DNA from: a virus
Virus record (IMG/VR): IMGVR_UViG_3300046323_000419
Span: 1 to 64,000 of that record
Direction: 5' to 3' (one strand)
Length of the DNA stretch: 64,000 nucleotides
The notes beneath the pieces are model-generated. The model was not told the origin of the DNA and did not search any database. It saw only the letters and a list, made by a program, of their open reading frames with translations. This document shows, piece after piece, positions 1 to 28,816 of the stretch; the stretch's first letter is position 1, and each line of letters begins with the position of its first letter. The translations under genes and the position numbers were made by a program.

Positions 1-148
1 TATCTTCTTGAATAAAATGACCATCTTTAGAAATGGCTTGAGGCTCCGATTTAGAGCCTCCTATTTTACCAATTGCTGAAATAATTTTATTATCTTTTTG
101 TAGAAATAATTCTGGATCTGTACCTAAAGTGATATTTTTAATTTTCAT
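1..148 (-). CDS. COOH-NH2 ligase type 2-like protein, 5' part only (runs off the left edge)
   Basis: The first 49 codons are visible, from the ATG at 148. They carry TLGTDPE (residues 7-13), a GGSK turn (about 31-34) and a QED near the edge. These match my recollection of the N-terminus of the phage COOH-NH2 (amido) ligase type 2 family, a glutamine-synthetase-like fold that joins a carboxylate to an amine using ATP. It is the most downstream gene of a leftward operon holding amidotransferase, ATP-grasp, cyclotransferase and GNAT genes, which is the known company of this family in some phages. The catalytic part lies outside the window, so the call rests on motif plus neighbours. Confidence 0.6.
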   Translation of the reverse strand, partial: MKIKNITLGTDPELFLQKDNKIISAIGKIGGSKSEPQAISKDGHFIQED

Positions 149-157
149 ATTTTTTTA

Positions 158-1147
158 TTAAATTGGAGTTTCTTGTTCTTCATAATAATCTTGATGGTCT
201 TCTTCATAATGATTATCCTCTTCATCATATTGATTATTTTTCCAATAATCTAAAGGACTTTGTAAAAATTGAGAATTATTAGATTTTTTTGATTTTTTAA
301 ATTCTTTTAAATATTTATCAATTAAATTTAAACACATTAAGGATGTTCTTCTTTCGCAATGACTCCATTCGGGATGACCTTGGATACATAAAGAATTTGT
401 ATTTTTATAATATACAATTTCAGGTTCTAAGAAATCTTTTGATAATTCAATTTCTTCATTATCACCATTGAGATAAGTTTTACTTTGAAAATATTCAGAA
501 TATGCAATTAATTCATAATCTTTTTTATTTAAATCGAATGGATATAACATTTGATGATGTGAAGAAGTAATATTATATCTCATTTTATTGTTTAAAATCA
601 TTGAATGATCTCTACAATGACCTTCTACGTGTTGAATTAGTCTTCCTCCACTTAAAACTGTTAATAACTGTGAGCCACGACATATAGAAAGTAGAAAAGA
701 ATGTCCTCTAAATTTATTAAATGTTTCAATTTCCTTTTGATCTCTAGAAATATTAATACTGGTATATTTTCCAACTCTTTCATTATATTGTGCAGGATTA
801 ACATCTTCACCTCCTGTAAATAATACTAAATCAATATCTTTTGTATTTTTTACATCTATTGTTTTATGAACAATAACTTCATATTTTTCATTTAAATATG
901 AAACATAATCTAAAGATGAAGCATCGTTTGCAATTACAATATTTAAAATTTGTTTTACTTCAGGTTCTTTAATAACATTATTCAAATAATTATATATAGT
1001 TTCCACTTTATTTAATATTTCTTCACCTTCAATTTCTTCATACAAATTAGCTGAAATACAAGTGTTTAAAAATGTTTTAATTATACTTTTATTAGTAGTT
1101 ACATCTAATTTATATGATTGTATTTTTTTTAATAATTCTGGATTCAT
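158..1147 (-). CDS. Class I glutamine amidotransferase-like / C26 gamma-glutamyl hydrolase-like protein (first copy)
   Basis: 329 aa. It has the class I amidotransferase fold signature of the C26 (PuuD-like) family: oxyanion turn TGGEDVNP at 111-118, nucleophile elbow SICRGSQ with Cys156, and QGHPE with His258 and Glu260, so the triad is complete. About 65 residues at the N-terminus precede the domain and are not recognised; the C-terminal tail is acidic and low complexity. Family members cleave or transfer gamma-glutamyl or amide groups. Its ATG overlaps the stop of the ATP-grasp gene by 4 nt, so the two are probably translationally coupled. The substrate is unknown. Confidence 0.8.
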   Translation of the reverse strand: MNPELLKKIQSYKLDVTTNKSIIKTFLNTCISANLYEEIEGEEILNKVETIYNYLNNVIKEPEVKQILNIVIANDASSLDYVSYLNEKYEVIVHKTIDVKNTKDIDLVLFTGGEDVNPAQYNERVGKYTSINISRDQKEIETFNKFRGHSFLLSICRGSQLLTVLSGGRLIQHVEGHCRDHSMILNNKMRYNITSSHHQMLYPFDLNKKDYELIAYSEYFQSKTYLNGDNEEIELSKDFLEPEIVYYKNTNSLCIQGHPEWSHCERRTSLMCLNLIDKYLKEFKKSKKSNNSQFLQSPLDYWKNNQYDEEDNHYEEDHQDYYEEQETPI

Positions 1148-1992
1148 TTGTTATTATATTTATCTATTAATAATTTTGGTAAAATTTCTATATATTTTTG
1201 ACCTGTAATTTCTCCAAAACTGGCAGCACTACAGCTTTCAAATATAACCCATTCAGGATTTTCTCTTTCAATTCCATCTTTAGCACCTTGAACACCTACG
1301 TCAAATGCGCAAATGTCTAATCCTAAAGCATTTTTTGCTTTAATACAATCTGCAACAATATCATCCCAATTCTTAGGTTTCTTAAATGATGGATTTTCTT
1401 CTAATACCCAATTGCAAACATCATCATGACGTTGCCAAGTACCTTCAGGAGCATCATTTTTAACTAATTTTCTACAAGTATAGAAACAACCAAATTTAGT
1501 TACATGTAATCTATATTCTCTAGTCATTTTTACAAATTTTTCAAATATATAATTATCAAGATTCTTATTTGGTAACCAAGCTAAAAACTCTTCTTCAGTA
1601 TTAAATTTAGTATTACCAATACCTCTTGAACCAAAGTGAGATTTTGCTACAATAGGATAAGGTAACTCTTCAATTTCAATATCATTATTTTCATCATCTT
1701 TAATTGCAAAATAATAAAGACCATCATCATCTATTTGATAAGTAAACCAATTAGCAGTTTTAACACCGACTTCAGTAAATTTCTGTTTCATTAACAATTT
1801 AGAAGCTGAGTTTTTAACTGCTTGAATAGTATTAATTTCCAATCTACCATCTGACTCTGTTGACGATCCAAGTCTTATCACAGATCTAAATGGTAATAAT
1901 GGTAATGTTTGATTCTTAGCTCTTAAAATTGAGTGAGATGGATGCCTACTAAGTAACATCGGACGGAATAATTTATATTTTTTTTTAATCAT
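1144..1992 (-). CDS. ATP-grasp peptide/amide ligase (RimK-like)
   Basis: 282 aa. The nucleotide-binding lysine and glycine-rich loop are visible as YPIVAKSHFGSRGIGN (112-127). The ATP-clamp and substrate strand is FEKFVKMTREYRLHV (150-164), and the metal-binding C-terminal strand is WVIFESCSAASF. ATP-grasp ligases of this type activate a carboxylate as acyl phosphate and couple it to an amine. It sits between two C26 proteins, overlapping one gene by 4 nt and the other by 8 nt. Ligation of an amino acid to a peptide, protein or small molecule is an inference from the operon. Confidence 0.8.
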   Translation of the reverse strand: MIKKKYKLFRPMLLSRHPSHSILRAKNQTLPLLPFRSVIRLGSSTESDGRLEINTIQAVKNSASKLLMKQKFTEVGVKTANWFTYQIDDDGLYYFAIKDDENNDIEIEELPYPIVAKSHFGSRGIGNTKFNTEEEFLAWLPNKNLDNYIFEKFVKMTREYRLHVTKFGCFYTCRKLVKNDAPEGTWQRHDDVCNWVLEENPSFKKPKNWDDIVADCIKAKNALGLDICAFDVGVQGAKDGIERENPEWVIFESCSAASFGEITGQKYIEILPKLLIDKYNNK

Positions 1993-2692
1993 TGTTTAAA
2001 TTTAATAAGTGATTAATTAATCTGATACTAAAATCATCTCTTTTATCTTCTGGATGCCACTGAACTGTGTGTGCAGGATAATTTGGAAAATAAGTTAATG
2101 CTTCAATACAACCTTCTTCCCAATGTTCTTTTTCTTTTCCATCATATCTACCAATTACTGTTGCATTTTCAGGACAATCTGCAACTACTTGATGATGTCT
2201 ACTATTTACATCAAAATTTAAATCATTATAATCATGCATTGTAGGAATTGTATGTTTAATAAAGTCATAGGTTTCAACTTTATGCATTGTTTTAACCCCA
2301 TCATTAGAGGGGTTAGTTTCATGATACATGTGCTGAATTAATTTAGCTCCAAAATGAACAGCTAAACTTTGATGTCCACGACAAATACCAAATATGGGAA
2401 TTTTAGCCTCAATATATTTAGGTAATAAAACTCTATCAAATCTCTCTTTTTGCATACAGGGTGAACCTGTATAAATATGAGTATCATCTTCAGGTGATAA
2501 ATATCGATAAGGATCTACATCTTGACCACCTGGCATTACCAATAAATCTATATCTCTTATATGTTTTTCAAACGGTGAGATTAGAGATACTTCTCCAAAT
2601 TGTTGCCAAAAGAATAAATATGGTTTAGAAATTCCAAAACTATTTTCTCCTGTAAAATGTCCTATCAGGGCTATTTTTTTTATATTGTTCAT
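1985..2692 (-). CDS. Class I glutamine amidotransferase-like / C26 gamma-glutamyl hydrolase-like protein (second copy)
   Basis: 235 aa, without the N-terminal extension of the first copy. The motifs are MPGGQDVDP (53-61), GICRGHQ with Cys104, and QWHPED with His213 and Glu215, giving a complete Cys-His-Glu triad. The region after the elbow (GAKLIQHMYHET) is typical of C26 hydrolases. It lies upstream of the ATP-grasp gene and overlaps it by 8 nt. The two C26 proteins differ in length and in the loops around the active site, so they probably act on different substrates rather than being a recent duplication. Confidence 0.82.
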   Translation of the reverse strand: MNNIKKIALIGHFTGENSFGISKPYLFFWQQFGEVSLISPFEKHIRDIDLLVMPGGQDVDPYRYLSPEDDTHIYTGSPCMQKERFDRVLLPKYIEAKIPIFGICRGHQSLAVHFGAKLIQHMYHETNPSNDGVKTMHKVETYDFIKHTIPTMHDYNDLNFDVNSRHHQVVADCPENATVIGRYDGKEKEHWEEGCIEALTYFPNYPAHTVQWHPEDKRDDFSIRLINHLLNLNND

Positions 2693-2698
2693 TATTTT

Positions 2699-3112
2699 TT
2701 AATTATTTGTAACACTTGACCACGATTTTTCTTCATTTTTATGTAAAACCCAATCTCCAGATTCTACAATAGAATCTTTAGATAATTCATTTACATAAAT
2801 ATATGTATATGATTTACCCCAAGGTGTATTAATTTCAATTCTATCATAGAAAGTTGATTTCTCTCCAGGATAATATCCTTCTAATCTATTTAAATGGTTT
2901 AAAGTATGTTCGTCAACTTCATAAACTTCCATTACAACAGAATGATTTCCATTTAATTTCAATCCTGGATAAGCCGAAAGTGAATGTAAGGTATATTCTG
3001 GTTCTGTTGTAAATGTTCCTTTATATTCAGAATTTGATAAATAATATTGATGGTTTCCCATTCCACGTCTTAAACTACCATAACAAGCAACCAATGTTTT
3101 ATTTTTTCCCAT
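2699..3112 (-). CDS. Gamma-glutamylcyclotransferase-like (AIG2/BtrG fold) protein
   Basis: 137 aa, the usual length for the fold. The substrate-binding YGSLRRG motif is at 11-17 and the catalytic acid is in RLEGY (Glu78). This family releases 5-oxoproline from gamma-glutamyl amines; BtrG-type members remove a gamma-glutamyl protecting group in antibiotic biosynthesis. Beside ligases and amidotransferases it could trim or cyclise gamma-glutamyl intermediates. The gene ends 6 nt before the next and shares one base with the upstream paralogue. Confidence 0.8.
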   Translation of the reverse strand: MGKNKTLVACYGSLRRGMGNHQYYLSNSEYKGTFTTEPEYTLHSLSAYPGLKLNGNHSVVMEVYEVDEHTLNHLNRLEGYYPGEKSTFYDRIEINTPWGKSYTYIYVNELSKDSIVESGDWVLHKNEEKSWSSVTNN

Positions 3113-3627
3113 TATAATGTTAATGATTTGTTACCCATTACTTTTTTATAATTCAAATATTCAACCCAATCACCATTGACTATAAGATTTTCTTTAGATT
3201 GTTCAACATTTGTAAAATATATTATAATTTTACCAAATGGTGATAACACTTCTTGTTTCATATAATCTTGTGGGTATTCTTCAAGTGATGGATAATAGTT
3301 ATAACTTCTTTCAATTTTATCTAAGGTGATTTCATCTATTTCCCAAACTTCTATTTTAATAGAATTATTTCCATTAGTTTCAACAACACAATTATCATCC
3401 TCATCTATATTATACATATTATAAATAGGTTCTGTAGAATAAGATCCTGTTAATTTACAATTTATTTTATTTAACATTACATTTAAAGAACCATCTTTTC
3501 TATAATCATCATATATACCTACTAAAAACTTTTTTTCCATTTGTGATTGTTTTTTTAATTCCTTCTTTTCCTTTTTTAACTGAGCTCTACTTTTGTAACC
3601 ATCAGATTGTTTGTTAACTTTTCTCAT
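3112..3627 (-). CDS. Second gamma-glutamylcyclotransferase-fold protein, substrate motif altered
   Basis: 171 aa. A basic stretch of about 30 residues (rich in Lys) precedes a domain that aligns by eye with its downstream neighbour. YDDYRKDG stands where the neighbour has YGSLRRG, followed by a TGSYSTEPIY strand and KIERSYNYYP where the neighbour has RLEGYYPG. The catalytic-position Glu is kept but the YGSL loop is lost, so it may bind something else or be inactive. The stop overlaps the start of the downstream gene by one base and its own ATG overlaps the GNAT stop by 4 nt. Confidence 0.6.
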   Translation of the reverse strand: MRKVNKQSDGYKSRAQLKKEKKELKKQSQMEKKFLVGIYDDYRKDGSLNVMLNKINCKLTGSYSTEPIYNMYNIDEDDNCVVETNGNNSIKIEVWEIDEITLDKIERSYNYYPSLEEYPQDYMKQEVLSPFGKIIIYFTNVEQSKENLIVNGDWVEYLNYKKVMGNKSLTL

Positions 3628-4076
3628 AACTCTTTAATAGTTACATTTAATACATTATTTGTTCTAGGATTTTTAAATTCGTGAATATGTTTCCAACCAT
3701 TTTTATCTAAAGTTTTCATTTGTGGTGTATTTGATTTTAAATCTGTACACATTAATAATCCGTATTCTAAATGTTTTGCAATATCAATTCTAAAGTTATT
3801 TAAAAGTGAATTGACACCTTTATCTCTGAATTTAATATTTACATATGTCCCTGTACTAATACATATTCCACAACAACCTACCATTTGCAAAAGAGTAAAT
3901 TGAGATATTAATTCGTTTTCTAAATTAACAACTTGAATTTGAAGACCTTTATAAGTATCTTTAACATATACTAAATCTCCTAATGTTAAAGTTTTATAAT
4001 TTCCATACACACCATATTGTATAATTACATCTTGATCTAATAATTCTTTTAACTGTTTTGTATATTTTTCTATCAT
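3624..4076 (-). CDS. GNAT-like acetyltransferase domain protein
   Basis: 150 aa. The central part has the GNAT layout: a strand ending GTYVNIKF, then a RDKGVNSLL segment at the place of the acetyl-CoA pyrophosphate loop, a helix, a CTDLKSN strand and a C-terminal KNGWKHIHEF turn common in this superfamily. GNAT proteins are known members of phage amidoligase operons. Start and stop overlap both neighbours by 4 nt. The fold call is moderate because the RxxGxG/A loop is degenerate. Confidence 0.55.
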   Translation of the reverse strand: MIEKYTKQLKELLDQDVIIQYGVYGNYKTLTLGDLVYVKDTYKGLQIQVVNLENELISQFTLLQMVGCCGICISTGTYVNIKFRDKGVNSLLNNFRIDIAKHLEYGLLMCTDLKSNTPQMKTLDKNGWKHIHEFKNPRTNNVLNVTIKEL

Positions 4077-4609
4077 ATTTGTTTTATTTCAGATGTAACT
4101 TTTATTTCATTATCTAAATTTTTTAATTCAATGTATCTATAATATTCACCATATTCACAATCATAATTTAAAAATTCAATTAATTCATCAGGATTTTTAG
4201 ATTTTAAAAAATTAATTAAATTACTAACTTTAAGATGTTTAGATTTAAACTCTTTTTGTAATTTATTAAACTCTTCAATACAATTTTCTTTTTTACAGTA
4301 GAAATATTTAGCGTCTTCTATTAAAATTTCTTTATTTGTTTGTTTTTGATATGCTCTATATTTCCCGTTCATATCTACTCTATGAGATTCTTTTTCTACA
4401 AATAATCCTTGTAAATAATCACATAATAATATAGTTGTTTCAGAAGCTTCTGTTGAAATTCCGTTTATTGCAAGTAATCCACAAAACATATTATTTCGAG
4501 TTTTAGCTTTTTTTAAATCTATTGTATGAATATTTGTTTCATCAACATAATATACTATAGCTTGCTCTAATATATCATAATTGTCTTTTGTTAAAAATGT
4601 ATTTTTCAT
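4073..4609 (-). CDS. Hypothetical protein at the head of the amide-ligase operon
   Basis: 178 aa, charged, soluble, no recognised motif. It contains several Cys and Tyr residues (YFYCKKENC, then YDCEYGEYYRY). The 4-nt overlap with the GNAT gene and the 35-nt gap to the primase gene upstream make it the first gene of the compact operon. It could be a substrate, a carrier or a regulator, but nothing in the sequence decides this. Confidence 0.7.
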   Translation of the reverse strand: MKNTFLTKDNYDILEQAIVYYVDETNIHTIDLKKAKTRNNMFCGLLAINGISTEASETTILLCDYLQGLFVEKESHRVDMNGKYRAYQKQTNKEILIEDAKYFYCKKENCIEEFNKLQKEFKSKHLKVSNLINFLKSKNPDELIEFLNYDCEYGEYYRYIELKNLDNEIKVTSEIKQI

Positions 4610-4644: not shown

Positions 4645-5670
4645 TTAAAAAGGTAATAATGTTTCATATATTAATATATGTTCTGCTTGTTCTTTACCGT
4701 AATTTTTAACTAAATCTGAAAAATCTTTAGATTGATATTTATCAGGAATAAAACTATCAACTAATCCAAATTCTTTAGCAAATTTATTTGCAAATATTCT
4801 CCCCCAATTAGGATCTTTATCAAAATCATTATCATATAATAATTCAATATCTGTAAATCTAGATTCTAACTGTTTAAATATATGTTTTTTTGGTAATACA
4901 TTCTCAGATTGCATTGCAATTGCTGGTATTTTTGTAATTTCATATAATGACATTACATCTTTCAATGATTTAGTTATTATTAAAGTAATTCCAGATTCTG
5001 GTAATTGAGTCCATCCTTGCCATACAGAATTATTATGATTATTAATCCATTTATAATTTTCACTAAAAGGTTGATAAATTTTATATGTTTCAATACCATC
5101 TTTCATTTCAATAAAACAATATGCATATTTATCAGCGGGAAAACAATTATTTCCAATAAATATATAACTTATAGGTTGTACATTAAAGAATTCTAATGTT
5201 TCTTTACTAATACTAAACTGTCTCCAAAATAATACATCGTGCGATTGCCATTCTCTAGCTTTTTTACCTAAATAATAACCTGTATATTTAGATAACATAT
5301 CATCTTTAATAATTCTAACTTTAGGTGTATTATCACCACTTTTAGGATATATTTTACATATATAATCATCTTGAAGATTAAAATCATTTGCAACTTTACT
5401 TAACGCTTCAAAATATGTTAAACCGTCTCTTAATCTTAAAAACTGTATAAAATCTCCTTTTCCAAGCTTAAAATCATTAAAACATATTTCATTACCTTCT
5501 CCAACAAAGAATCCAAATGAAGCCTTGTTTTCCTTTCTTAGAGGCGATAATATTAGTTTACCTAACATTACTTCATCATCTATATAATGTTGAAATATTT
5601 CTAATTCGTTAAAGTATTTTAAAATCTCAGATTTAGATATTAATTGTTTTTCTTTATTTAAATTAAACAT
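4645..5670 (-). CDS. DNA primase, DnaG-type with degenerate zinc and Toprim motifs
   Basis: 341 aa. The N-terminal part reads SPLRKENKASFGFF (42-55), equivalent to the segment after the zinc ribbon of DnaG-like primases, but the usual Cys/His zinc ligands are absent. A Toprim core follows: IITKSLKDV (231-239) in place of the EGxxD strand and LLYDNDFD (277-284) as the DxD strand. The canonical Toprim Glu is replaced, a variant I associate with phage primases. It would lay RNA primers for the polymerase at 13960-15975 together with the helicase at 8647-9771. Confidence 0.72.
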   Translation of the reverse strand: MFNLNKEKQLISKSEILKYFNELEIFQHYIDDEVMLGKLILSPLRKENKASFGFFVGEGNEICFNDFKLGKGDFIQFLRLRDGLTYFEALSKVANDFNLQDDYICKIYPKSGDNTPKVRIIKDDMLSKYTGYYLGKKAREWQSHDVLFWRQFSISKETLEFFNVQPISYIFIGNNCFPADKYAYCFIEMKDGIETYKIYQPFSENYKWINNHNNSVWQGWTQLPESGITLIITKSLKDVMSLYEITKIPAIAMQSENVLPKKHIFKQLESRFTDIELLYDNDFDKDPNWGRIFANKFAKEFGLVDSFIPDKYQSKDFSDLVKNYGKEQAEHILIYETLLPF

Positions 5671-27355: not shown

Positions 27356-28816
27356 ATGGAAGAATTACACTTTGGAAAAGAAGCAAGAGATAAAATTATA
27401 GAAGGGATTAATGATTTAAATAAAGCAGTTAGTTCAACAATGGGGCCAAATGGAGCTACTGTTATAATACCTAATAAAAATAAATATGGTGAATATATTA
27501 TAACTAAAGATGGTGTTTCTGTTGCAGAACAAATTATATTTAAAGATCCATTAAAAAATATTGGTGCAAACTTAATTAAACAGGTTGCTAGAAAGACTGT
27601 AGAAGATGCTGGAGATGGTACAACTACTAGTATAGTATTAGCTACAGCATTTGTTAACAATCTAAAAGATTTCAAATCTATAGATATTAACAAAGCTTTT
27701 AATGAAATTATACCAAAAGTCATTGAACAATTAAAACTTAATTCACGAGAATTAAAACATGAAGATATTAAACACGTTGCTAGCATATCTGCTAATAATG
27801 ATTTACAGATTGGTGAACTTATTCAACAAGCTTATAACCATTCTGATATAGTTAAAATTGAAGAGAGTTCTAATATAGAAGATATATTAGATACACTACC
27901 AGGAATGTCACTTCCAGTAAGTTACTTTTCTAAACATTTTATTACAAACCAATCTAAAGGAACTTGCGAATTTACAAATGTTAATACTTTAGTTATTGAT
28001 AGTAAGTTAGAAAAGTTAGAAAACTTTAGATCTATACTAGAATTAACACAGCAACCTAATAGTTCATTATTAATAATTGTTGAGGATATTCACGAACAAG
28101 CTCTTAGAAAGCTTGAAACTTTTGTTCTATCACAATCATTACCGATATGTGTTATTAAGTCACCAGGCTTCTCTAAACACCGTAAAGATTTATTACAAGA
28201 CTTATGTTACTTTACAGGAAGTACATTAATTACAGATATATCTAAATTTTATAATACAGATGTTCTTGGTAAATTACAATCTTGTAAAATATCTAAAAAT
28301 AATAGTATATTAGTTAAAGATGATTCTATAGATGTTTCTGATAAATTAGAAAACCTAATTGAATTATCTAAAAATATAGAATTAGCTGAACACGATAAAG
28401 ATTTAATTAAACAACGTATTGAATACCTTAAAGGTAAAATATCTATTATTAAAGTTGGTGGTAAATCAGAACTAGAAATGAAAGAACGTTTTGATAGATA
28501 TGATGATGCTGTTAAAGCGGTGGCTTGTGCATTAGAAGAAGGGATTGTTGAAGGTGGTGGTATTGCATTAGCTAATATAGCTTTAAATATAACAGATACA
28601 AAAGATATAATTTTTAAAATAACAGATGCTTTATGTTCTCCAAATAATACAATTATAAATAATGGTTCTGAAATAAATAATAATAATATGTTTGAACAGA
28701 ATATTATAGACCCATTAAAAGTAACTAGATGTGCATTAGAAAATGCAGTATCAGTTGCTAAAGTTATACTAAGCACCGAAGCTGTAGTTTTAAATTCTGA
28801 AGAATGGATGAAATAA
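27356..28816 (+). CDS. GroEL-like chaperonin (phage-encoded, shortened)
   Basis: 486 aa, compared with about 545 for bacterial GroEL. Nucleotide-site motifs are kept: TMGPNG (28-33), KDGVSV with D52, DAGDGTTT (84-91), the catalytic-Asp helix RYDDAVKAV (about 380-389), EGGGIAL and IIDPLKVTRCALENA (about 449-463). Apical-domain strands such as SSLLIIVEDI and SPGFSKHRKDLLQD match GroEL's LLIIAEDV and APGFGDRRKAMLQD. The equatorial region before IIDP is shortened and the GGM tail is absent. It overlaps the terminase gene by 13 nt. Confidence 0.9.
   Translation: MEELHFGKEARDKIIEGINDLNKAVSSTMGPNGATVIIPNKNKYGEYIITKDGVSVAEQIIFKDPLKNIGANLIKQVARKTVEDAGDGTTTSIVLATAFVNNLKDFKSIDINKAFNEIIPKVIEQLKLNSRELKHEDIKHVASISANNDLQIGELIQQAYNHSDIVKIEESSNIEDILDTLPGMSLPVSYFSKHFITNQSKGTCEFTNVNTLVIDSKLEKLENFRSILELTQQPNSSLLIIVEDIHEQALRKLETFVLSQSLPICVIKSPGFSKHRKDLLQDLCYFTGSTLITDISKFYNTDVLGKLQSCKISKNNSILVKDDSIDVSDKLENLIELSKNIELAEHDKDLIKQRIEYLKGKISIIKVGGKSELEMKERFDRYDDAVKAVACALEEGIVEGGGIALANIALNITDTKDIIFKITDALCSPNNTIINNGSEINNNNMFEQNIIDPLKVTRCALENAVSVAKVILSTEAVVLNSEEWMK

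What the first reader, a model, noticed from the sequence alone, without database searches (positions are those of the whole stretch)
1..4609. Compact amide-bond chemistry operon: COOH-NH2 ligase, ATP-grasp ligase, two C26 amidotransferases, two cyclotransferase-fold proteins, one GNAT
Eight leftward genes with 1-8 nt overlaps encode two ligase types, two hydrolase/transferase proteins with full Cys-His-Glu triads, two GGCT-fold proteins and a GNAT. Related phage sets (phiEco32-type amidoligase operons) are known from comparative genomics, but their product is not established to my knowledge. The set looks like a small pathway that makes or edits a gamma-glutamyl-type peptide, cell-wall part or protein modification. 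This is the best candidate here for an undescribed system.
Basis: partly seen in the sequence, partly recalled or inferred. Interest (0 to 1): 0.82.

Follow-up and report, generated by a model that had tools for sequence, protein, structure and literature searches.

The report
Phage amide-bond gene module, crAss-like version
This crAss-like phage carries a tight block of enzymes that make and cut amide (probably gamma-glutamyl) bonds; the block is a new version of a module already described in other phages and guessed to alter the host cell wall, and its real product is still unknown.

Summary
The eight leftward genes are real, and seven of the eight assignments hold up. The eighth (H) is an orphan. 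The operon is cut by the window edge: the 100,363-bp record is circular (130-bp end overlap), and the operon continues into a class-II glutamine amidotransferase (GAT-II) and an Amidoligase_2. The full set (GGCT, two C26, ATP-grasp, COOH-NH2 ligase, GAT-II, Amidoligase_2) is kept together in 30 of 37 related viral loci and lies beside the DNA primase. It is not undescribed: it is the phiEco32/phiRIO-1-type 'peptidoglycan modification' module, published in LUZ24, PaP3, PA11, PSA-HP1 and others; COOH-NH2 ligase homologues occur in 308 phage records. What looks new in the crAss-like version: (1) an N-terminal membrane segment directly before the catalytic Cys of GAT-II in 27 of 53 rows, absent in six comparison GAT-IIs; (2) a primase-side GGCT copy that lost its catalytic Glu (F here), paired with an intact copy; (3) two C26 subfamilies; (4) a recurrent GNAT. 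Best reading: a cytoplasmic, partly membrane-linked pathway that builds and trims a gamma-glutamyl-type adduct, most plausibly on a cell-wall precursor. The target is untested; DNA-modification and small-molecule rivals remain open.

The parts
1..148 (-). Gene A, first 49 codons of the COOH-NH2 ligase (phiEco32-type, GCS superfamily; 270 aa when joined to record bases 99569-100363)
   Evidence: PF14395 1.8e-6, phrog_3815 3e-69; D11, E13, D49, E54, R134, H139, R176, E194, R196 invariant in 47/47 relatives
1..130 (.). Direct repeat of the record's last 130 bases (1 mismatch): the record is circular and the operon continues at the record's far end (GAT-II at record 97650-99566, Amidoligase_2 at 95918-97675, UDG-like at 95233-95937, RusA at 94796-95239)
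158..1147 (-). Gene B, C26 / class-I GATase-fold gamma-glutamyl hydrolase-like protein, 329 aa, with about 70 extra N-terminal residues
   Evidence: PF07722 2.8e-14, phrog_7218 7e-34; Cys-His-Glu triad present and conserved
1144..1992 (-). Gene C, RimK-like ATP-grasp amide ligase, 282 aa; metal-binding ExN motif reads ESC
   Evidence: phrog_2599 2.7e-21; 49% identical to phi14:2 homologue; ExN Asn is Cys in 17/59 relatives including this one
1985..2692 (-). Gene D, second C26 protein (PuuD/Lin1909-like), 235 aa, full triad
   Evidence: PF07722 1.7e-25; nearest solved chains include Lin1909 and PuuD; separate clade from B (quick tree)
2699..3112 (-). Gene E, gamma-glutamyl cyclotransferase (GGACT/YtfP family), catalytic YGSL loop and Glu present
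   Evidence: PF06094 8.5e-19; YtfP 1xhs 1.1e-14
3112..3627 (-). Gene F, degenerate cyclotransferase-fold paralogue (loop YDDY, catalytic Glu replaced by Tyr), likely not catalytic as a cyclotransferase
3624..4076 (-). Gene G, single-domain GNAT-fold protein, 150 aa
   Evidence: AlphaFold2 model pLDDT 84.4 and Foldseek match to PDB GNATs; homologues inside the cassette of four other contigs at varying positions
4073..4609 (-). Gene H, orphan 178 aa ORF, first gene of the run after the primase
   Evidence: no relative found; membership in the pathway rests on position only
4645..5670 (-). DNA primase directly upstream, the conserved neighbour of the module (not part of the pathway)
   Evidence: phrog_12622 2.8e-57; primase and a GGCT lie within 800 nt in 36 of 43 loci

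Best explanation
This is the crAss-like version of the phage amidoligase module known from phiEco32, LUZ24 and phiRIO-1. Two glutamine-synthetase-superfamily ligases (COOH-NH2 ligase, Amidoligase_2) and one RimK-like ATP-grasp ligase use ATP to join carboxyl groups to amines. GAT-II supplies ammonia from glutamine or acts as an Ntn amidase. The two C26 hydrolases and the intact GGCT trim or recycle gamma-glutamyl amides, and the GNAT may acylate a free amine. The inactive GGCT copy probably binds or regulates instead of cutting. All of this happens in the cytoplasm early in infection. In many crAss-like phages GAT-II is synthesised with a membrane-inserted N-terminal segment that must be removed to free its catalytic Cys, so part of the chemistry probably takes place at the inner membrane, which fits modification of lipid-linked cell-wall precursors. 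Shown here: module membership, gene linkage, conserved active sites, the loss of catalytic residues in F. Predicted from sequence: the membrane segment. Inferred: gamma-glutamyl chemistry (about 0.65), cell-wall target (about 0.35), removal of the membrane segment.
For: Same enzymes beside the primase in phi14:2, phiEco32 and PaP3. All six enzyme types in 30/37 loci, 369/372 on one strand. Catalytic residues near-invariant: GAT-II Cys 53/53, C26 Cys/His/Glu 71-72/72, ligase metal and ATP residues 47/47 and 59/59. C26, GGCT and class-II Ntn proteins each have known relatives that break gamma-glutamyl amides (PuuD, GGACT/BtrG, EgtC: general knowledge; searches show the sequence or fold links for PuuD, YtfP and EgtC). 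GAT-II extension in 27/53 rows: one hydrophobic helix, net charge -0.1 before and +2.1 after it over 24 distinct extensions, then usually L(S/N/G)|C. In PSA-HP1 the module is expressed immediately on infection (PMC7082346); SU10 makes its ATP-grasp, GAT-II and GGCT proteins (PMC4281155).
Against: No product or substrate has been measured for any such module in the papers read. GAT-II lacks the membrane segment in half of the loci and in phiEco32, PaP3, TC6, WD615, cr108_1 and Lbo-JY46, so membrane linkage is not essential. Codon positions in the extension do not show the third-position excess seen in the core (58/37/41 against 143/65/271), so the extension may carry nucleotide-level constraint as well. 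The window's ATP-grasp lacks the Asn of the ExN metal site. The conserved place beside the primase is not what a purely cell-wall function would predict, though early expression could explain it.
Confidence: 0.5

Rival explanations
1. The module makes and recycles a soluble gamma-glutamyl amine or small peptide (polyamine or amino-acid derivative). Gamma-glutamylation serves as a carrier or protecting group that is later removed by C26 or GGCT, as in the PuuA/PuuD, EgtA/EgtC and BtrJ/BtrG pairs.
For: Two to three different folds in the set have relatives that remove gamma-glutamyl groups, next to GCS/GS-type ligases. Synthesis plus several removal steps is easier to explain with a protected intermediate than with a stable cell-wall change.
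Against: Does not explain the membrane segment on GAT-II or why two further ligases are needed. No enzyme of amine synthesis or transport was recognised as conserved in the cassette.
Confidence: 0.25
2. The module makes a covalent hypermodification of phage DNA bases by amide chemistry and so protects the genome.
For: The module lies inside the replication block beside the primase in crAss-like phages, phiEco32 and PaP3. Gordonclarkvirinae, to which the carrier phiEco32 belongs, are reported remarkably resistant to restriction systems without a known modification pathway (PMC11990801).
Against: DNA of phage tf, listed among carriers (PMC5498523), is cut by RsaI, HpaI, EcoRV, SmaI and HaeIII (PMC3517423). 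PMC11990801 offers dCTP deaminase and a nucleotidyltransferase as another cause. No base-hydroxylating or nucleotide-activating enzyme was recognised in the module.
Confidence: 0.1
3. Protein tagging: the ATP-grasp and amidoligases add glutamate or other residues to a host or phage protein (RimK-like), and the C26/GGCT proteins remove them.
For: PHROGs names the ATP-grasp family 'ribosomal protein S6 glutaminyl transferase'; RimK adds residues to S6 (general knowledge).
Against: The window protein lacks the ExN Asn and the family is only distantly related to solved ATP-grasps. One ligase would do for a tag; three different ones are kept.
Confidence: 0.12

Closest known systems
Phage 'peptidoglycan modification' module (phiRIO-1, PSA-HP1, phiEco32, Salmonella 7-11, PA11, tf, LUZ24, PaP3, CW02; Iyer et al. 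2009, Hardies et al. 2013, as reported in PMC5498523)
   Same: COOH-NH2 ligase, Amidoligase_2, class-II GATase, ATP-grasp, GGCT, and C26 in some; embedded among replication genes
   Different: Two C26 proteins of two subfamilies, an extra catalytically dead GGCT, a GNAT, an N-terminal membrane segment on GAT-II, and ExN to ESC in the ATP-grasp; host group probably Bacteroidota (inference from crAss-like affiliation)
Cellulophaga phage phi14:2 (Steigviridae, Asinivirinae), genes g036-g042
   Same: Same order: primase, GGCT, ATP-grasp, COOH-NH2 ligase, GAT-II (with membrane segment), amidoligase, UDG
   Different: No C26, no second GGCT, no GNAT; ExN motif intact
Leptolyngbya phage Lbo-JY46
   Same: All six enzyme types, three C26 copies
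   Different: Different order; GAT-II starts MCG with no membrane segment; PRPP synthetase and PncB nearby
PuuA/PuuD gamma-glutamylputrescine pathway
   Same: GS-superfamily ligase paired with a C26 hydrolase; D matches PuuD in the PDB set (1.8e-5)
   Different: Phage ligases are of other families (PF14395, PF12224); no Puu oxidase or dehydrogenase recognised

Membership tests
phiEco32/phiRIO-1-type amidoligase ('peptidoglycan modification') module | COOH-NH2 ligase (PF14395) | tested here: met
   1.8e-6, 27.8 bits against cut-off 25; phrog_3815 3.1e-69
phiEco32/phiRIO-1-type amidoligase ('peptidoglycan modification') module | Amidoligase_2 (PF12224) | tested here: met
   24.2 bits against cut-off 22; outside the window, reached through the circular record
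phiEco32/phiRIO-1-type amidoligase ('peptidoglycan modification') module | Class-II glutamine amidotransferase | tested here: met
   PF13522 28.9 bits against 27; fold match of the close relative L007 to the GlmS glutaminase domain
phiEco32/phiRIO-1-type amidoligase ('peptidoglycan modification') module | ATP-grasp ligase and GGCT in the same gene run | tested here: met
phiEco32/phiRIO-1-type amidoligase ('peptidoglycan modification') module | Lies among replication genes | tested here: met
   primase 35 nt upstream of H; UDG-like and RusA downstream of Amidoligase_2
phiEco32/phiRIO-1-type amidoligase ('peptidoglycan modification') module | Modifies host peptidoglycan | not testable with these tools
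   proposed in the literature, no experiment found
Gamma-glutamyl cyclotransferase (GGACT/AIG2) | YGxL loop and catalytic Glu, protein E | tested here: met
   CYGSLRRG and LNRLEGYY
Gamma-glutamyl cyclotransferase (GGACT/AIG2) | YGxL loop and catalytic Glu, protein F | tested here: not met
   IYDDYRKD and Tyr at the Glu column
Peptidase C26 / gamma-glutamyl hydrolase | Cys-His-Glu triad, proteins B and D | tested here: met
   ICRG and HPE motifs in both; 71-72 of 72 relatives
RimK-type ATP-grasp | ExN metal-binding motif | tested here: not met
   E-S-C in the window; Asn in 40 of 59 relatives
GNAT | GNAT fold | tested here: met
   model pLDDT 84.4, best PDB match 4.5e-8, many GNATs; no Pfam match
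GlmS (database name of the related phage GAT-IIs) | C-terminal SIS isomerase domains | tested here: not met
   only the glutaminase domain matches; the C-terminal half has no Pfam or PDB match

The most novel reading that the evidence does not exclude
The amide-ligase module makes a new hypermodified base in phage DNA and explains the unexplained restriction resistance of phiEco32-like phages and the module's constant place beside the primase in unrelated phage families.
Probability: 0.1. Interest if true: 0.85.

Novelty: new variant of a known kind. Interest (0 to 1): 0.42.

Why it matters
A six-to-seven enzyme pathway kept together in crAss-like phages and in several other phage groups has no known product. 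The crAss-like version gives two handles the published versions do not: a membrane segment fused directly ahead of the GAT-II nucleophile, which points to chemistry at the inner membrane and can be tested in the cultured phage phi14:2, and repeated pairing of an active with an inactive cyclotransferase, which points to a binding or regulatory subunit.

Tried and rejected
Chance or annotation artefact: rejected, homologues and conserved active sites throughout. Cellular operon origin: one scan of genome contigs with the ATP-grasp alignment gave a single 9-kb MAG contig, so no cellular counterpart was found; a wider alignment had no stretch conserved enough to search. Gene H: no homologue in phages, viral contigs or fetched loci even with all filters off. 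GlmS and asparagine synthetase readings of GAT-II: no SIS or synthetase domain. Lipoprotein reading of the ..LxC motif: rejected by inference, because the Cys is the invariant catalytic nucleophile and a Lys-containing linker separates it from the hydrophobic stretch. Independent loss of the GGCT Glu: three changes on the tree, but a single clade is not rejected (p_AU 0.065), so not claimed. RNA elements: no Rfam match in the window. Promoter scan no better than shuffles. The two primary papers (Iyer 2009; Hardies 2013) were not read: Iyer is not held, Hardies did not appear in the search; both are cited through later papers.
Full report
WHAT IS THERE. The window is bases 1-64000 of a 100,363-bp virus record. 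Its capsid, portal, terminase and polymerase genes match PHROGs, and the module's DNA and synteny match Cellulophaga phage phi14:2, a Crassvirales member. The record's ends overlap by 130 bp with one mismatch, so the genome is circular and the operon at window base 1 continues at the record's other end. The full run, in transcription order, is: primase, H (orphan), G (GNAT), F (degenerate GGCT), E (GGCT), D (C26), C (ATP-grasp), B (C26), A (COOH-NH2 ligase), GAT-II, Amidoligase_2, UDG-like, RusA. The finding's 1-4609 interval is only the first part of it.

CHECK OF THE CLAIMS. Junctions overlap by 1, 4, 4, 4 and 8 nt, with gaps of 6 and 9 nt at two places. Both C26 proteins have the complete triad. 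The GNAT has no sequence-family match, but an AlphaFold2 model from five relatives (pLDDT 84) matches PDB GNATs. F is a GGCT homologue (31% identical to E) without the YGxL loop and with Tyr in place of the catalytic Glu. H has no relative.

COMPARATIVE GENOMICS. A scan of IMG/VR with the ATP-grasp alignment gave 56 loci. Iterated profile searches on their ORFs gave gene maps. Of 37 loci with at least 6.5 kb on both sides of the ATP-grasp, GAT-II and Amidoligase_2 are present in 37, COOH-NH2 ligase in 36, GGCT in 33, C26 in 33, and all six types in 30; 369 of 372 such genes lie on the ATP-grasp strand. The sample was drawn by the ATP-grasp, so these are conditional frequencies, and the loci are related. 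A GGCT lies within 800 nt of the primase in 36 of 43 loci. In GenBank phages the COOH-NH2 ligase matches 308 records, including LUZ24, PaP3, PA11, phiEco32-like, Proteus, Salmonella 7-11 and Vibrio phages. In phiEco32 and PaP3 the GGCT also lies next to the primase/helicase, one small gene away.

WHAT IS KNOWN. The module is published. PMC5498523 calls it a 'peptidoglycan modification cassette', credits earlier work (Iyer et al., Hardies et al.) and lists phiRIO-1, phiEco32, 7-11, PA11, tf, MR299-2, LUZ24, PaP3 and CW02. PMC11945000 repeats it for a LUZ24-like phage and gives two proposed purposes: superinfection exclusion, or preparing the wall for lysis. PMC6256558 reports a seven-ORF version in Sinorhizobium phage PhiM6. 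PMC7082346 shows that the genes are expressed immediately in PSA-HP1 infection. SU10 proteomics detected its ATP-grasp, GAT-II and YtfP/GGCT proteins in PEG-concentrated phage (PMC4281155). No paper read gives a product. The two primary papers could not be read here.

WHAT IS DIFFERENT HERE. (1) In 27 of 53 GAT-II rows, including the window's phage and phi14:2 (some rows are duplicates; 24 extensions are distinct), the invariant catalytic Cys is preceded by 23-48 residues: a hydrophobic helix, usually a short Lys-containing linker (often FKPKxNTL), and mostly S, N or G directly before the Cys; the other rows start M-C. Over the 24 distinct extensions the mean net charge is -0.1 before the helix and +2.1 after it, which by the positive-inside rule puts the enzyme domain in the cytoplasm. 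Class-II GATases need a free N-terminal Cys (general knowledge; propeptide cleavage is known in PurF and glutamate synthase), so removal of the segment is inferred. Six comparison GAT-IIs outside the IMG/VR set (phiEco32, PaP3, TC6, WD615, cr108_1, Lbo-JY46) start with the codon directly before the Cys, with an in-frame stop a few codons upstream. Caveat: codon-position differences in the extension (58/37/41) lack the third-position excess of the core (143/65/271), so nucleotide-level constraint may add to the conservation; the coding case rests on constant spacing, conserved motif and the phi14:2 annotation. (2) 22 of 67 GGCT rows lack the catalytic Glu. In 18 loci with two GGCTs (one duplicate contig left out), 16 have exactly one copy with the Glu, and in all 16 the copy nearer the primase is the one that lost it. 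Five further loci show a single, Glu-less copy; they are cut or short on the primase side, so a second copy cannot be assessed. The tree needs three changes; one clade is not rejected (p_AU 0.065). (3) B and D belong to two separate C26 clades, each represented in many loci (quick tree). (4) GNAT G recurs in the cassette of four other contigs (L010, L034, L017, L062) at different positions. (5) The ATP-grasp ExN Asn is Cys in 17 of 59 rows.

MECHANISM. Shown: linkage, conserved catalytic residues, loss of the cyclotransferase site in F. Predicted: the membrane segment. Inferred: the ligases form amide bonds, probably gamma-glutamyl; GAT-II provides ammonia or cleaves an amide (its fold also matches the gamma-glutamyl Ntn hydrolase EgtC); C26 and GGCT trim or recycle; membrane-linked GAT-II points to lipid-linked cell-wall precursors. 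I give gamma-glutamyl-type chemistry about 0.65 and the cell-wall target about 0.35. The DNA-modification reading draws on the primase-side location and on unexplained restriction resistance of Gordonclarkvirinae (PMC11990801); it is weakened by tf DNA being cut by five ordinary restriction enzymes (PMC3517423). Small-molecule and protein-tag readings stay open.

VERDICT. A real, conserved, functionally coherent module, already described in other phages; here a structurally distinct crAss-like variant with two testable new features. Novelty: new variant of a known kind.

Noticed in passing
L010:11833-13707; L035:7599-9209; L033:9611-12225: Cassette genes in relatives are interrupted by insertions with homing-endonuclease-like ORFs (LAGLIDADG-like in L010, HNH-like in L033 and L035, by eye), at conserved active-site stretches such as the C26 nucleophile region. 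Rfam finds no intron family there.
   Followed up: partly
window 27356-28816: Phage-encoded GroEL-like chaperonin (phrog_5725, 4e-113) directly before the terminase large subunit.
   Followed up: no
L005:11120-11203 (record about 99483-99566): The membrane-segment codons of GAT-II differ less at third positions than the core (41 of 390 against 271 of 900 codon comparisons) among six relatives, suggesting extra nucleotide-level constraint at the gene start.
   Followed up: partly
L004:10187-14396: In Leptolyngbya phage Lbo-JY46 the module lies beside PRPP synthetase and nicotinate phosphoribosyltransferase genes.
   Followed up: no
window around 22000: GC skew and AT skew change sign near 22 kb, where the leftward early genes meet the rightward late genes.
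   Followed up: no
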